NCBI RefSeq assembly: GCF_000447205.1
Contig: NZ_AUWY01000120.1
Coordinates: 62,001 to 126,000, forward strand
Length of the DNA: 64,000 bases
Source: Sphingobium ummariense RL-3
GTDB lineage: Bacteria > Pseudomonadota > Alphaproteobacteria > Sphingomonadales > Sphingomonadaceae
Direction: 5' to 3'
The notes beneath the pieces are model-generated. The model was not told the origin of the DNA. It worked only from the letters and a program-made list of their open reading frames with translations, and did no database searches. Every line of letters starts with the position of its first letter. Within the stretch, counting starts at the first letter, position 1. This document shows positions 38,643 through 57,160 of the stretch, piece by piece. A program made the position numbers and the translations under genes.

Positions 38643-38657
38643 AGGAAGGCCGGTCTA

Positions 38658-39704
38658 GAGTCTGTCCTGTTTATATTGAAGCATAGCCGCTGTTCCTGAG
38701 GTAGTTTGCGCACTCATGGGGCGGGAAGGCGTCGAGCAGTTGGCCGATGCGTTGCCACGTTGCCTCGACGGTTCGTTCGGCGGCCTTGCGCAGGAGCAGC
38801 TTGAGCTTGGCAAAGACCTGCTCGATCGGATTGAGGTCGGGGCTGTAGGGCGGCAGGAACAGGAGCTTGGCACCTGCCGCCCGGATCGCCTTTCGCACGG
38901 CTTGACCCTTGTGGTTGCCCAGATTGTCCATGATCACGATGTCGCCGGGCGACAGGGTCGGCACGAGGAACTGCTCGACGTAAGCGGTGAAGAGTTGGCC
39001 ATTGATCGGGCCGTCGAGCACGCATGGTGCGTCGATCCGGTCACAACGCAGCGCCGCCACGAAGGTCAGCGTCTTCCACTTGCCGAACGGGGCCTTGGCG
39101 ACGAGCTTGCTGCCGCGTTTTGACCAGCCCCTGAGCGGGGTCATGTTGGTCTTGACCCAGGTCTCGTCGATGAAGACCAGCTTGCGGGGATCAAGCCGAC
39201 CCTGATACTTCTTCCACTGCGTCCGCCGCCGCGCCACCTTCGGGCGATCCTGCTCGCTGGCGAACAGGCTTTTTTTTGAAGCTGTGACCGGCCTTGCGCA
39301 GCAACGACCACACCGTGTTCGGGCTGACCTGGTAACCGCGCTCGGCCAGTTCCACTGCAAGCCCCCGAACCGTCAGATGCGGGCATTCCTCAAGCCGCAG
39401 CAGCATCCATTGCTGCTCGCCCGCCAGAACCCGCCGCTTGTGACCGCCCATCGGCCGGGAACCGGCACTGCCGGTATCGCGCAACCGCTGCGACCACTTC
39501 ACCGCGCTCGCCACGCTTACCCCAAAAGTCGCTGCAACCTCGCGGCTTGATCGGCCTGACAAAACCGCCACCGCCACCCGTTCCCGAAGATCGTCAGAAT
39601 AGGCTCGTGCCATCCCTGCTGGCCTCCTGCCCAGCCAGCAGCTTGAATCACAATCCAACCGCCTTGAGAATCCCCAATCGATTCAGCTTCATCAGGACAG
39701 ACTC
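38658..39704 (-). mobile_element. IS630-family insertion sequence, complete
   Basis: The element is 1,047 bp with perfect 12-bp ends GAGTCTGTCCTG (38658-38669; inverse at 39693-39704), flanked by TA on both sides (38656-38657, 39705-39706), the TA target duplication typical of IS630/Tc1-mariner elements. Similarity of the ends continues further in (TGAAGC). It contains a two-frame transposase gene. Clean ends and an intact DDE set suggest recent arrival. Confidence 0.93.
38671..39613 (-). CDS. IS630-family transposase (two overlapping frames)
   Basis: The first frame starts at ATG 39613 (MARAYSDDLRERVAVAVLSG) with the helix-turn-helix SSREVAATFGVSVASAVKW. The second carries the DDE core: FIDETWVKTNMTPL, IVIMDNLGNHKG and PDLNPIEQVFAKLK, and ends at 38671. 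The frames meet at an A8 run (39270-39277, minus strand), after KAGHSFKKK; a +1 or -2 slip there joins them into one protein of about 314 residues. Whether this is programmed slippage or a mutation cannot be told from one copy. The product cuts at TA. Confidence 0.88.
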
Positions 39705-39770
39705 TAAAGGGACCGGCCTTTTCCGTGGAGCGAGTGCGGCCTGCCCATTTTCTTGGGCGATATGCTCGTA

Positions 39771-54534: not shown

Positions 54535-56049
54535 ATGAACTCGATGCTCAGCCGGGTGCGCGCCGTCGCCGAAACGATGGCGCCGACGTCGCAGGCCGAC
54601 CATGGGCGGATGGCGATCATCGACATCGGGTCGAACAGCATCCGCCTGGTCGTCTATGACGGGCCACGCCGCATCCCCTTCATCCTCTTCAACGAGAAGG
54701 TGATGGCGGGATTGGGCGGATCGCTGGCGCGCACGGGGCGGATAGAGGCCGAGCCGATGGAGCGCGGCCTGAAGGCAGTGGCGCGCTTTGCCCATCTGTG
54801 CGGCGACATGGGTGTGGCGGACGTGCGCTGCGTCGCCACCGCGGCCGTGCGCGATGCCGCCAACGGGGCCGATTTCATCGCCCGCACCGAGGCGATGGGC
54901 GTGAAGGTCGACCTGTTGTCCGGTTCGCAGGAGGCGATCGGCGCGGGCTATGGCGTGCTGTCGGGCATTCCGGGCGCGGACGGCGTGGTCGGCGACCTGG
55001 GCGGCGGCAGCCTGGAGCTGGCGCGCATCCGGGACGGCGGCGTGCACGAGACGGTGTCGCTGCCGCTGGGCGTGCTGCGCCTGCCGCAGATCCGGGCGAA
55101 GGGGCCCAAGGCGCTGGAGCGGCAGGTCGGCCGGATGCTGGAAAAGGCGGGATGGGCGGTGAAGCCGGGCCTGCCCTTCTACCTTGTCGGCGGGTCGTGG
55201 CGGGCGCTGGCGCGCTTCGACATGCAACTCACCCATTTTCCGCTGCCGGTGGTGCACCAATATGAGATGCCGGCGAGCCGGGCGGAGCGGTTGACCCGCA
55301 TCGTGTCGCATGTCGGCCGGGCGCGGCTGAAGGACATACCGGCGATCACCGGGTCGCGCGTGCCGACGCTGCCCGACGCGGCAGCGCTGCTGTCGGTCAT
55401 GGTGCGGCAGCTGCGGTCGAGCCGGCTGGTGGTGTCGGCCTATGGCCTGCGCGAGGGGCTGCTGTTCGAGGACCTGCCGCCGGACATCCGGGAGCAGGAC
55501 CCGCTGCTGGTGGCGGCCGAGGCGGAGGGCGAGGCGCAGGCCCGCTTTCCCGGCCATGGCGATGTCATCGAGCGCTGGATCGCCCCGCTGTTCCTGGAGG
55601 ACGGCAGCGGCTGGCGGCGAATCCGGCGCGCAGCCTGCCTGCTGGCCGATGTGGGCTGGCGCGCCAATCCGGATTTCCGGGCGGAACGCGGCGTGGAGAT
55701 CGCGCTGCACAGCAACTGGGTGGGCATCACCGCGCCCGAGCGGGCCATGCTGGCGCAGGCGCTGTGCAGCAATTTCGGCGGCGGAGCGGTGCCGCTGCCC
55801 GCGCTGGAACGGCTGGCGTCGCCCGAGGCGCTGCGCCGCGCCGTGCTGTGGGGCTTGGCGATCCGCCTGGGACAGCGACTGTCGGCTGGTGTCGAGGGGC
55901 CGCTGGTGATGTCGGCGCTGGAGCTGGAGGGCGGCCTGCTGACGCTCACCCTGCGCCACAGGGACGGGGCGCTGCTGGGCGAAGCGGTCGAACGGCGGCT
56001 GCGCCAGCTCGCCCAGGCGATGGGGGTGGAGTATCGGCTGGTGGTGTAG
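54535..56049 (+). CDS. ppx: Ppx/GppA-type exopolyphosphatase
   Basis: A 504-residue phosphatase of the actin-like fold, degrading polyphosphate or pppGpp. MAIIDIGSNSIRLVVYDG and VVGDLGGGSLELARI are the phosphate-binding loops; TAAVRDAANG and LLSGSQEAIGAGYGVL are family motifs. The C-terminal half is the HD-like region seen in long Ppx proteins (REGLLFEDLPPDIREQDPL). It starts 6 bases after ppk1, so synthesis and breakdown of polyphosphate are encoded together. Confidence 0.94.
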   Translation: MNSMLSRVRAVAETMAPTSQADHGRMAIIDIGSNSIRLVVYDGPRRIPFILFNEKVMAGLGGSLARTGRIEAEPMERGLKAVARFAHLCGDMGVADVRCVATAAVRDAANGADFIARTEAMGVKVDLLSGSQEAIGAGYGVLSGIPGADGVVGDLGGGSLELARIRDGGVHETVSLPLGVLRLPQIRAKGPKALERQVGRMLEKAGWAVKPGLPFYLVGGSWRALARFDMQLTHFPLPVVHQYEMPASRAERLTRIVSHVGRARLKDIPAITGSRVPTLPDAAALLSVMVRQLRSSRLVVSAYGLREGLLFEDLPPDIREQDPLLVAAEAEGEAQARFPGHGDVIERWIAPLFLEDGSGWRRIRRAACLLADVGWRANPDFRAERGVEIALHSNWVGITAPERAMLAQALCSNFGGGAVPLPALERLASPEALRRAVLWGLAIRLGQRLSAGVEGPLVMSALELEGGLLTLTLRHRDGALLGEAVERRLRQLAQAMGVEYRLVV

Positions 56050-56063
56050 AGCCACCTCAACAT

Positions 56064-56090
56064 CGTCGTCCCAGCGCAAGCTGGGATCTC
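56064..56090. repeat. 27-bp palindromic repeat downstream of the GIY-YIG gene (also ppx terminator)
   Basis: CGTCGTCCCAGC, loop GCAA, GCTGGGATCTC, with stem TCCCAGC/GCTGGGA (56069-56075, 56080-56086), followed by TCTTTCTT. It acts as a likely terminator for ppx. It matches the copy at 56432-56458 in inverted orientation at 23 of 27 bases, and two of the differences are a compensating C-G to G-C swap in the stem. Confidence 0.82.
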
Positions 56091-56110
56091 TCTTTCTTCG
56101 TTTCAGCCCT

Positions 56111-56404
56111 TCATTCCAGGTGCAGTGTATCGAACAGGTCTTGCCATTGCGGATTGATGGTTTCGATCAGTTCGATCTTCCATTGCCGTTTCCAGGCTTT
56201 CATTGCCTTTTCTCGCGCGATCGCTTCGATGATTGTTTCATGCCGTTCGGCATAGACGAGCCTGATCAGATTGTAGCGACGGCAAAATTCCGAACCCGTC
56301 TCATCGCGATGTTGCATGGTGCGATGGGGCAGGCTGGTCGTGACGCCGATGTAGAGCACGCCATAGGCACGGTTCGTCATGATATAGACCCAGCCGCCTC
56401 TCAT
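56111..56404 (-). CDS. Small GIY-YIG nuclease-superfamily protein
   Basis: A 97-residue single-domain nuclease. GGWVYIMTNRAYGVLYIGVT holds the GIY-YIG pair (WVYIM and LYIGV), followed by RTMQHRDETGSEF (catalytic Arg and His region), NLIRLVYAERHET and AIAREKAMKAWKRQWKIELIE with the metal-binding Glu, ending NPQWQDL. This is the UPF0213/YhbQ-like group, small proteins that cut branched or structured DNA in some cases. It is bracketed by inverted copies of one 27-bp palindrome, 21 and 28 bases from its ends. ATG 56404 is the first supported start. Confidence 0.88.
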   Translation of the reverse strand: MRGGWVYIMTNRAYGVLYIGVTTSLPHRTMQHRDETGSEFCRRYNLIRLVYAERHETIIEAIAREKAMKAWKRQWKIELIETINPQWQDLFDTLHLE

Positions 56405-56431
56405 GGCGGCGAGGATGTACTGGAAGGAAGT

Positions 56432-56458
56432 GAGATGCCAGCTTTCGCTGGCATGACG
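56432..56458. repeat. 27-bp palindromic repeat upstream of the GIY-YIG gene
   Basis: GAGATGCCAGC, loop TTTC, GCTGGCATGACG. It is the inverted partner of the copy at 56064-56090. Stem ATGCCAGC/GCTGGCAT is perfect. It lies 28 bases upstream of the nuclease ATG. Confidence 0.82.
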
Positions 56459-56524
56459 GAAGAGGGTGGGCCTCTTCCCAGCCCCCATCTTCCTTCGCGC
56501 CGAAAATCCCGGTAAGGCCCGGCG

Positions 56525-57160
56525 ATGACGACTCCCGCCGCCGCGCCGCTTTCCCGCTCGCTCTTCGTCTTTTCGATCCTCTATGGCGGCATGGTCTGCA
56601 TGGCGGGCGTGTTGGGGGTGAAGCAGGTGGTGCTGGGGCCGCTGGCGGTGGAGGCGGGCATCTTCGCCTTCCTGATGCTGGTCATCCTGTCGAGTGCGGT
56701 GTCCGAGCTGCATGGGGAGAAGGTCGCGACCGGGCTGGTGCGGCTGGGCTTCGTGCCGCTGCTGGTGTCGGCGGCGCTGATCCAGATCGTCATCGCTCTG
56801 CCGCACGACCCCGGCATGTATCCGCCAGCGATCGAGGCGTTTCCGATCGTCGTCGGGCAGGGCGCGCGGATGATGATCGCCGGGCTGATTTCCTACGGCA
56901 CGTCGCAGACGCTCAACGTCTTCATCTTTTCGAAGCTGTCGCGGGGCGAGGGCAAGCTGGTCTGGCTGCGCGGCATGATCGCCAGCGTCGTGTCCCAGAT
57001 CGTCGACACGGTGCTGTTCATCACCATATCCTTCCTGGGCGAGCGGCCGATCCTGGACCTGATGGTCGGACAGATGATCGCCAAGGTCGTGCTGTCGATC
57101 GTGCTGGTGCCGCCGTTGATCTCCGCAGTGGTGGCCCTGGGGCGGCGGTTGGATCGCTGA
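56525..57160 (+). CDS. Queuosine precursor transporter (YhhQ/VUT family)
   Basis: A 211-residue inner-membrane protein with six hydrophobic segments. LAVEAGIFAFLMLVILSSAVSELHGEKVA carries the family's SE(L/V)xG block, and SYGTSQTLNVFIFSKLSRGEGK with RGMIASVVSQIVDTVLFI is diagnostic of the VUT/ECF-like vitamin uptake family, whose YhhQ member imports 7-cyano-7-deazaguanine. Substrate assignment follows the family. ATG 56525 starts 67 bases after the palindrome. Confidence 0.88.
   Translation: MTTPAAAPLSRSLFVFSILYGGMVCMAGVLGVKQVVLGPLAVEAGIFAFLMLVILSSAVSELHGEKVATGLVRLGFVPLLVSAALIQIVIALPHDPGMYPPAIEAFPIVVGQGARMMIAGLISYGTSQTLNVFIFSKLSRGEGKLVWLRGMIASVVSQIVDTVLFITISFLGERPILDLMVGQMIAKVVLSIVLVPPLISAVVALGRRLDR

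What the first reader, a model, noticed from the sequence alone, without database searches (positions are those of the whole stretch)
56064..56458. Small GIY-YIG nuclease gene bracketed by inverted copies of one palindromic repeat: a possible REP-type mobile unit
Seen: the 97-residue GIY-YIG gene (56111-56404) has a 27-bp palindrome 20 bases after its stop and an inverted copy 27 bases before its start. The copies agree at 23 of 27 bases, and two differences are a paired C-G to G-C change that keeps the stem. Known: REP palindromes are spread by RAYT Y1 transposases, whose genes sit between inverted REPs. Inference: a GIY-YIG nuclease, able to cut structured DNA, could act as the partner of this palindrome family. 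I know of no description of such a pair.
Basis: partly seen in the sequence, partly recalled or inferred. Interest (0 to 1): 0.72.

Follow-up and report, generated by a model that had tools for sequence, protein, structure and literature searches.

The report
Nuclease gene paired with palindromic repeats
A very small gene for a likely DNA-cutting enzyme is bracketed by mirror-image copies of a short hairpin repeat, and the same pairing recurs across many bacteria with matching enzyme and repeat types, which suggests that this enzyme may be the missing spreader of a common repeat family.

Summary
The window holds a 395-bp unit (56064-56458): CGTC-tagged palindrome, 97-aa GIY-YIG gene, inverted palindrome. 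The palindromes fit the CGTC-1 REPs of Di Nocera et al. [quoted passage not shown]

Gene-first: 55 of 60 small GIY-YIG genes in the genus have inverted flanking repeats, against 0 of 411 displaced windows. Repeat-first: two REPs of this family about 300-355 bp apart occur at 20 places in 94 genomes; all 18 fetched hold the GIY-YIG gene. Across phyla, 69 of 80 genes of the "GTLYIGVT" subtype have an outward CGTC REP (displaced windows 38 of 640); other GIY-YIG subtypes 0 of 38.

Enzyme and repeat co-vary (Mantel 0 of 2000 permutations). Sequence shared between unrelated sites ends at the tags. Empty sites, scattered copies, deletion derivatives and double-tagged single REPs at occupied sites indicate mobility. 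Y1 transposases do not explain the repeats.

Not shown: cleavage of the REP, or movement. Best reading: a REP-bounded mobile unit in which a GIY-YIG nuclease takes RAYT's place.

The parts
56064..56458 (.). whole REP-bounded unit, tag to tag (395 bp), between ppx and a queuosine-precursor-transporter gene
   Evidence: termini inferred from the identity profile of unrelated copies; no unit and no CCAGC REP at the same junction in L155 and L158
56111..56404 (-). GIY-YIG nuclease gene, 97 aa; Y7, G15, G20, R28, E65, N84 conserved
   Evidence: dN/dS 0.05-0.15 among it and six close relatives
56064..56090 (+). CGTC-tagged REP at the 3' side of the gene: tag 56064-56067, stem 56068-56075/56080-56087, loop GCAA 56076-56079
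56432..56458 (-). inverted CGTC-tagged REP at the 5' side of the gene: tag 56455-56458, stem 56447-56454/56435-56442
56088..56101 (+). right subterminal sequence (CTCTCTTTCTTCGT), resembling one end of the short REP dimers of the same genome
   Evidence: by eye
56421..56434 (-). left subterminal sequence (CTCACTTCCTTCCA on the gene strand), resembling the other end of the short REP dimers
   Evidence: by eye
54535..56049 (+). ppx/gppA-type exopolyphosphatase gene, left neighbour of the insertion site
56525..57160 (+). queuosine precursor transporter (YhhQ-like), right neighbour of the insertion site

Best explanation
The unit is a minimal mobile element made of one GIY-YIG nuclease gene between two outward-facing CGTC REPs. 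It is the GIY-YIG counterpart of a REP-RAYT "REPtron".

SHOWN by comparison: the CGTC tags are the ends of the sequence shared between unrelated sites; each nuclease clade tends to go with its own REP stem; units occur at non-homologous sites and are missing at orthologous ones; partly deleted units exist; the protein is intact and under purifying selection.

INFERRED: the short REP dimers are further deleted units. The nuclease recognises its cognate REP as a hairpin (single strand or cruciform) and nicks or cuts at or near it. Repair of the break then copies the unit, or a nuclease-less dimer, into another place, preferably one that already holds a REP. This would be homing-like rather than strand transfer, because GIY-YIG enzymes hydrolyse DNA (recalled). 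Loss by the reverse route, or by slippage between the two palindromes, leaves a single double-tagged REP (CGTC-stem-loop-stem-GACG).
For: ASSOCIATION. Gene-first: inverted flanking repeat (score >=15) in 55/60 loci, against 0/411 displaced windows, 123/600 swapped flanks and 22/60 in direct orientation. Further sets: 23/29, 27/30, 15/28 and 6/27, with controls 1/116, 0/120, 0/107 and 0/106. Named GTDB loci of many phyla (best 80 of 590): 45/75 testable, against 3/494. Outward CGTC REP on either side in 69/80, on both sides in 41/80; displaced windows 38/640 and 1/640.

REPEAT-FIRST: 94 whole genomes, 20 places; 18/18 fetched hold the gene.

SPECIFICITY: "GTLYIGVT" subtype, outward REP upstream in 14/18, both sides 9/18; other subtypes 0/38 on either side.

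COGNATE PAIRING: upstream and downstream stems differ by at most 1 of 8 bases in 71/90 loci; 2000 shuffles gave mean 14, maximum 24. Mantel r = -0.33, 0/2000 permutations as extreme, 58 syntenic pairs excluded.

TERMINI: for proteins 65-75% identical, DNA identity is 0.24-0.30 outside the tags and 0.57-0.84 in the 30 bp inside (662 upstream and 693 downstream comparisons from 1257 non-syntenic pairs). The tag bases match by construction.

MOBILITY. Azospirillum sufB-sufC: unit in A. lipoferum, absent in three relatives.

DERIVATIVES: dimers resemble the unit's ends (by eye); deletion derivatives in G027 and S. meliloti; double-tagged REPs at occupied sites.

COPY NUMBER: REP median 20.5 in 22 genomes with the verified cognate unit, 3.5 in 22 without the clade, p = 0.0004; the other 17 genomes were left out.
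Against: No biochemical or real-time evidence. No clean target duplication was found. In G021 and G036 the near-identical copies extend about 50-60 bp beyond the tags, so some copies moved as part of a larger repeat; for proteins >=75% identical, identity outside the tags is 0.24-0.41, above random close to the tag.

Copy number does not track enzyme number simply: the count of P0001-type matches against CCAGC REPs over 61 genomes gives rho 0.15, p 0.24; against a second REP family rho 0.57, p 2e-6. Four genomes without the clade have 29-43 REPs (G037, G008, G049, G010). Phylogeny was not corrected for.

In the named set, direct-orientation matches are also common (42/75), and 99/800 swapped flanks pass, because taxa share REP types. 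Of 40 gene-sized outward REP pairs in the named loci, 3 hold other DNA. Other GIY-YIG subtypes lack CGTC REPs, yet 7 of 37 testable have some inverted flank >=15; one of them, L250, has a TGTC-tagged palindrome that the hairpin detector misses. The polA site collects other insertions too. Some genes of the right subtype have no good flanking pair (for example L251 and L257; Planktothrix).
Confidence: 0.74

Rival explanations
1. Domesticated host nuclease. The GIY-YIG protein is a host enzyme that processes REP cruciforms or transcripts; the flanking REPs are its regulatory or terminator sites, and the unit is spread by recombination rather than by its own action.
For: Strong purifying selection (dN/dS 0.05-0.15); double-tagged REPs could arise by slippage without any enzyme.
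Against: Several scattered copies in one genome (G021, G033, G060); presence or absence at orthologous sites; partly deleted units; REP type follows nuclease clade across phyla.
Confidence: 0.16
2. A RAYT/IS200-type Y1 transposase mobilises these REPs in trans and the GIY-YIG gene is cargo.
For: REP-RAYT pairs are the known precedent; G000 itself carries three Y1_Tnp matches of equal score.
Against: Only 17 of 61 genus genomes have any Y1_Tnp match; 35 of 44 genomes without one have at least 2 CCAGC REP hits; REP counts do not differ (median 14 vs 11, p 0.87). Of 22 Y1 loci, 3 have an inverted flank >=15 and none of those arms is a CGTC REP; 3 of the 22 have a CGTC-REP-like string somewhere in the flanks. 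Di Nocera et al. also report no tyrosine transposase gene flanked by CGTC REPs.
Confidence: 0.04
3. Chance or intergenic bias: REPs gather in intergenic gaps and the gene happens to lie in one.
For: REPs are intergenic and prefer 3' ends of genes (PMC3733652, abstract and passages). My displaced windows were not restricted to gaps, so they are a lenient control.
Against: Repeat-first search: 18 of 18 fetched gene-sized pairs hold this one gene family; other GIY-YIG subtypes 0 of 38; matching stems on both sides.
Confidence: 0.02
4. Free-standing homing endonuclease gene that uses REPs only as landing sites: the gene interrupts a double-tagged palindrome, cuts uninterrupted palindromes, and the REPs themselves spread by another route. 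(Overlaps with the best explanation in its cutting step.)
For: At two named sites the full unit or its remnant in one strain corresponds to a single double-tagged palindrome in relatives (Sphingobium fnrL; Sinorhizobium gltA-lpxB). At the polA site a diverged copy (dS 0.44 against G016) sits in opposite orientation within 96-97.5% identical flanks. G000 has three perfect double-tagged palindromes.
Against: Double-tagged palindromes are few (3 of 22 outward pairs in G000); short dimers resemble the unit's ends, so they look like derivatives, not merely targets; direction (insertion or excision) cannot be read from two states.
Confidence: 0.3

Closest known systems
REPtron: REP-associated tyrosine (Y1/HUH) transposase RAYT with GTAG REPs
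   Same: One small enzyme gene between inverted REPs; cognate enzyme-repeat pairs; dispersed nuclease-less monomers and dimers.
   Different: Enzyme is GIY-YIG (PF01541), not HUH/Y1; tag is CGTC, not GTAG; the chemistry cannot be the same.
CGTC-1 REP superfamily (Di Nocera et al. 2013, PMC3733652), including dRS3 of Neisseria
   Same: CGTC tag, 8-bp stem, 4-nt loop, tag-outward dimers; this repeat fits it. A type-A GIY-YIG gene in one N. gonorrhoeae record also lies between inverted CGTC REPs.
   Different: That paper reports no associated enzyme; its tails mostly fit CCA, here CTC.
Free-standing GIY-YIG homing endonuclease genes (I-TevI-like; recalled)
   Same: Solitary nuclease gene whose spread would rest on cutting a target.
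   Different: No further domain in 97 aa; bounded by the palindromes themselves; found at many unrelated loci.
IS200/IS605 elements and palindrome-ended relatives (recalled)
   Same: Subterminal hairpins as ends, small enzyme.
   Different: No Y1 transposase; inverted rather than asymmetric ends.
UPF0213 / YhbQ GIY-YIG proteins (PDB 1zg2, 1ywl)
   Same: Related by profile.
   Different: The LYTGITTDV-type genes that I equate with YhbQ/UPF0213 (recalled) carry no flanking REPs.
Penelope-like retroelements with GIY-YIG endonuclease (recalled)
   Same: GIY-YIG nuclease as target cutter of a mobile element.
   Different: No reverse transcriptase here; size 0.4 kb.

Membership tests
REPtron (RAYT + GTAG REP) | Encodes a Y1/HUH tyrosine transposase | tested here: not met
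   Only PF01541 found
REPtron (RAYT + GTAG REP) | Gene flanked by inverted REPs of a family dispersed in the genome | tested here: met
REPtron (RAYT + GTAG REP) | REPs tagged GTAG | tested here: not met
   Tag is CGTC
CGTC-1 REP | CGTC tag at one end | tested here: met
   56064-56067 and 56455-56458 reversed
CGTC-1 REP | 8-bp stem beginning with complementary AT, 4-nt loop | tested here: met
   56432-56458 exactly; 56064-56090 has a G-T outer pair; definition from PMC3733652 section 6
CGTC-1 REP | Short unpaired tail, mostly CCA | tested here: not met
   Tail here is CTC; the paper says most, not all
CGTC-1 REP | Mostly HH dimers | tested here: met
   18 short tag-outward dimers among 22 outward pairs in G000; I take HH to mean tag-outward, not checked in the paper's figure
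GIY-YIG nuclease superfamily | PF01541 above cut-off, GIY/YIG motifs, catalytic Arg and Glu | tested here: met
   45.1 bits vs 22.6; Y7, G15, G20, R28, E65, N84 invariant in A2; the roles of R and E are recalled
GIY-YIG nuclease superfamily | Nuclease activity | not testable with these tools
   needs protein
Transposable element | Defined inverted ends | tested here: met
   identity profile; exceptions in G021 and G036
Transposable element | Copies at unrelated sites and empty orthologous sites | tested here: met
Transposable element | Target-site duplication or fixed target motif | tested here: inconclusive
   flanks of available empty sites too diverged
Homing endonuclease gene | Gene interrupts its own target and cuts the uninterrupted form | tested here: inconclusive
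   double-tagged palindrome at the same site in relatives; cutting not testable

The most novel reading that the evidence does not exclude
CGTC REPs, spread through Alphaproteobacteria, Neisseria and other phyla, are the footprints of a class of mobile element driven by a stand-alone GIY-YIG nuclease. The enzyme cuts its cognate hairpin and re-lands the 0.4-kb unit, or its nuclease-less dimers, at REPs by break repair, without transposase chemistry. A second GIY-YIG subtype ("YYTGHTDN") does the same for an unrelated CCGTTCG...GTCGAA palindrome family.
Probability: 0.5. Interest if true: 0.93.

Novelty: new variant of a known kind. Interest (0 to 1): 0.85.

Why it matters
Di Nocera et al. (2013) left open what mobilises CGTC REPs and suggested that the enzyme may be extinct or replaced. 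Here a specific, testable candidate accompanies those repeats across phyla, with enzyme clade and repeat stem co-varying. If right, it names the mobiliser of one of the two REP superfamilies, gives a function to genes that the annotated records seen here call only "GIY-YIG nuclease family protein" or similar, and adds a mobile-element type of about 400 bp that works with a hydrolytic nuclease. Even if the mechanism is wrong, the enzyme-repeat co-variation needs an explanation.

Tried and rejected
RAYT in trans: tested and not supported. Defence gene: no PADLOC match for P0001 or L239. Simple inversion of the unit at the polA site: the inverted copy is about 10% diverged (dS 0.44) while its flanks are 96-97.5% identical, so replacement or a new insertion fits better. 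The four contig-end copies of G036, read as two genomic copies, looked like clean recent transposition, but similarity runs on outside the tags; the same holds for G021. A CCGTTCG-tag hairpin detector for the second repeat class found nothing, probably because that stem is interrupted; for that class only the inverted-repeat test counts. Target duplications: none readable. Rfam: only sub-threshold matches, BjrC68 17.7 vs 39 bits. Phages: 11 records, 34.7-39% identity.

Errors and dropped rows. The 60 loci were taken from the (capped) list in listing order, leaving out rows with open frame >=330 aa, rows already fetched, and three rows at contig ends. One edge locus was dropped in the class set, and five. 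In one search the match end of most named loci was set to a fixed coordinate. In one search the "without the clade" group was set by eye, G036 was added to the positive group by hand, and 17 genomes were left out; G044 (121 REP hits) is among those. At the polA site I read 15 of 30 fetched loci. Of 34 plasmid-collection records I read seven. At fnrL eight records were compared: three with the unit, one frameshifted, two double-tagged (one imperfect), two with other sequence.

Literature: searches over open PMC papers only (no bioRxiv, most subscription journals missing; several lists capped). The one paper holding both GIY-YIG and "extragenic palindrom" is a Moraxella gene list that does not link them (PMC9465073, passages). 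Read: PMC3733652 outline with abstract, passages, sections 6 and 16; PMC1564403 passages; PMC12306157 passages.

Full report
THE THING. Between a ppx-type gene (54535-56049) and a YhhQ-like transporter gene (56525-57160) lies a 395-bp unit, 56064-56458. Read on the minus strand it is: CGTC + ATGCCAGC-GAAA-GCTGGCAT + CTCACTTC..., a 97-aa GIY-YIG ORF...GAAGAAAGAGAG + ATCCCAGC-TTGC-GCTGGGAC + GACG. The protein passes Pfam PF01541 (45.1 vs 22.6 bits), has no NCBIfam match and no PADLOC match. In an alignment of 32 relatives Y7, G15, G20, R28, H32, E65, K69, R73, N84, W87 and D89 are invariant. Among it and six close relatives dN/dS is 0.05-0.15; one of 21 pairs was not computable. So the gene is maintained.

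THE REPEAT. The stem/loop/tag plan (CGTC, 8-bp stem, 4-nt loop) is that of the CGTC-1 REPs of Di Nocera et al. 2013 (PMC3733652, abstract and sections 6 and 16 read), except for the tail. The paper says CGTC repeats are not associated with transposase genes and "apparently lack a dedicated transposase". The genome of the window holds 55 strand-hits at up to one mismatch, control 0. They form 22 tag-outward pairs: 18 short dimers, 3 double-tagged single palindromes, and one gene-sized pair, this one. Among the 30 fetched hits there are 14 distinct dimers. Most show next to one hairpin a form of ATC(T/C)CACTT and next to the other an AAG-rich ...GAGAGAT, resembling the two ends of the GIY-YIG unit (by eye, no control). 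The dimers therefore look like internally deleted units.

IS THE PAIRING GENERAL? Gene first. From 61 genomes of the genus I took 60 small GIY-YIG loci (selection told under Tried and rejected). The best ungapped inverted repeat between the 300 bp upstream and the 450 bp downstream scores >=15 in 55 of 60, against 0 of 411 windows displaced by 0.9-2.6 kb, 123 of 600 flanks swapped between loci, and 22 of 60 in direct orientation. Other sets: 23/29 best hits (mostly the YYTGHTDN type), 27/30 P0001 homologues, 15/28 class-wide, 6/27 phylum-wide; controls 1/116, 0/120, 0/107, 0/106. Of the 21 phylum-wide misses about 12 are another subtype (LYTGITTDV and like, by eye). With a detector for CGTC-tagged hairpins, the GTLYIGVT subtype of the class and phylum sets has an outward REP upstream in 14 of 18 and on both sides in 9 of 18, the other subtypes in 0 of 38. 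Seven of 37 testable others do have some inverted flank >=15, among them L250, whose TGTC-tagged palindrome the detector misses. In 80 named GTDB loci from many phyla (the best 80 of 590 matches): upstream 53, downstream 57, both 41, either 69 of 80; displaced windows 12, 27, 1 and 38 of 640. With the alignment test 45 of 75 pass against 3 of 494; here direct orientation (42/75) and swapped flanks (99/800) are also frequent, because REP types are shared.

Repeat first. A pattern of two CCAGC REPs about 300-355 bp apart, run on all 94 held genomes of the genus, gave 20 places in 18 genomes (reversed-pattern control 0). All 18 fetched places contain the GIY-YIG gene, one (L421) with an in-frame stop; the other two, both in G004, show the same gene text in the listing. 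In the fetched type-A loci, gene-sized outward pairs (250-900 bp) held GIY-YIG in 39 of 39 (genus; two are further copies in the L188/L148 tandem array), 37 of 40 (named; two are second copies) and 6 of 6 (class and phylum); three named pairs held other DNA. These loci had been chosen for containing the gene, so only one search is free of that bias.

COGNATE PAIRS. In 90 of 155 type-A loci both REPs were detected. Their two 8-nt stems differ by at most one base in 71; shuffled pairings give mean 14, maximum 24 of 2000. Protein identity predicts stem similarity (Mantel r = -0.33, 0 of 2000 permutations, 58 syntenic pairs left out). Above 70% protein identity, 87-96% of non-syntenic pairs share the stem to within one base. 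A second GIY-YIG subtype (YYTGHTDN) goes with a different palindrome, CCGTTCG...GTCGAAGG (also L001 of the same genome).

ENDS AND MOVEMENT. For non-syntenic pairs with 65-75% identical proteins (1257 pairs; 662 anchored upstream, 693 downstream), DNA identity in 10-bp steps is 0.24-0.30 outside the tag and 0.84, 0.63-0.67, 0.57 inside, on both sides alike. The tag bases match by construction. For more similar proteins (216 pairs) the outside is 0.24-0.41. The closest relatives of P0001 (78-84%) lie beside polA (Pfam DNA_pol_A in the window copy). Of the 15 orthologous sites that I read (30 were fetched), three are empty (G036, G014, G056), one holds REP dimers (G015), four the unit, in either orientation, and seven other DNA. 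In G030 the copy is about 10% diverged (dS 0.44) within flanks of 96-97.5% identity, so it is not a mere inversion. In the window's own genome that site holds an IS630-like insertion (DDE_3 and HTH_Tnp_IS630), about 17 kb from the unit. ppx was found beside yhhQ in two relatives, G002 and G036; neither has the unit or a CCAGC REP there, G036 having another palindromic insert. G021 has three copies 92-93% identical at different places; G060 has three in tandem. Named empty sites: A. lipoferum 4B has the gene between sufB and sufC; three relatives with 95-97% identical sufB have 87-129 bp there. Inverted REPs also bracket the gene in one record each of N. gonorrhoeae, S. meliloti and N. aromaticivorans and in two Sphingobium records, but not by this test in Planktothrix.

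INTERMEDIATES. G027 has a 181-bp outward pair whose inside is a GIY-YIG gene with its middle missing; a second long pair of G027 holds other repeats. S. meliloti pSymB has a full unit beside a deleted one, and Sinorhizobium K101 has at the place of the deleted one a single palindrome with tag variants on both sides (CCTC...GACA). At Sphingobium fnrL the unit of TomMM7A, TomTYG46 and TomMM15 corresponds to a double-tagged palindrome in TomTYG64 and, imperfectly, TomTYG74; two further strains have other sequence there. Such a palindrome is the outer half of the left REP plus the outer half of the right REP. It folds at -16 kcal/mol against -8 to -9 for single REPs. It may be an excision scar or the landing site; the data do not say which.

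RIVALS. Y1 transposases are present in 17 of 61 genomes. REPs are as frequent without them (at least 2 hits in 35 of 44 genomes; medians 11 and 14, p 0.87), and no Y1 gene has a CGTC REP pair as its inverted flank (22 loci). REP number is higher where the cognate unit was verified (median 20.5 vs 3.5, p 0.0004, 44 of 61 genomes used), but it does not follow the raw number of matches for this family (rho 0.15, p 0.24; for a second family rho 0.57, p 2e-6), and four genomes without the clade hold 29-43 REPs. These results weaken, but do not remove, the claim that the enzyme drives spread.

NOVELTY. By anatomy this works like a REPtron, but it is not one: the defining Y1 enzyme and the GTAG tag were tested and are absent. 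No paper found in the held library links GIY-YIG to REPs. Preprints and most subscription journals are not in it.

Noticed in passing
window 38656-39760: The polA-side intergenic site, where relatives of P0001's unit sit, holds in this genome an IS630-like insertion (PF13358 DDE_3 and PF01710 HTH_Tnp_IS630 on two overlapping ORFs).
   Followed up: partly
window 13873/13976, 46546/46609, 50267/50371, 57213: A second palindrome family (CCGTTCG.CCTGAG...) is common in the window: 9 matches at up to 1 mismatch against 0.2 expected, several as inverted pairs; elsewhere this family brackets the YYTGHTDN-type GIY-YIG genes.
   Followed up: partly
L001 (G000:C124) and many best hits: The YYTGHTDN-type GIY-YIG gene often lies in a long open frame (360-400 codons) that continues into what looks like a TrmJ-like gene (recalled, not tested); several of these proteins have C-termini that seem to read through the palindrome.
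   Followed up: no
L188 (G060:C1:659972-661184): Three GIY-YIG units in tandem with a 467-bp period, about 96% identical.
   Followed up: partly
L189-L191, L184-L187: GIY-YIG units of G021 and G036 lie inside a larger dispersed repeat that extends 50-60 bp beyond the REPs.
   Followed up: partly
window 56055-56095 and 56425-56494: Both REPs give sub-threshold matches to Rfam BjrC68, a Bradyrhizobiaceae sRNA (17.7 vs 39 bits); BjrC68 may itself be a REP dimer (guess).
   Followed up: no
L372 (Azospirillum lipoferum 4B plasmid AZO_p3): The unit sits inside the suf gene cluster between sufB and sufC, flanked by extra REPs; an effect on sufC expression would be easy to test.
   Followed up: no
L330 682-1549, L344 1703-2356, L349 4364-5188: Three gene-sized outward REP pairs that hold other DNA, not GIY-YIG.
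   Followed up: no
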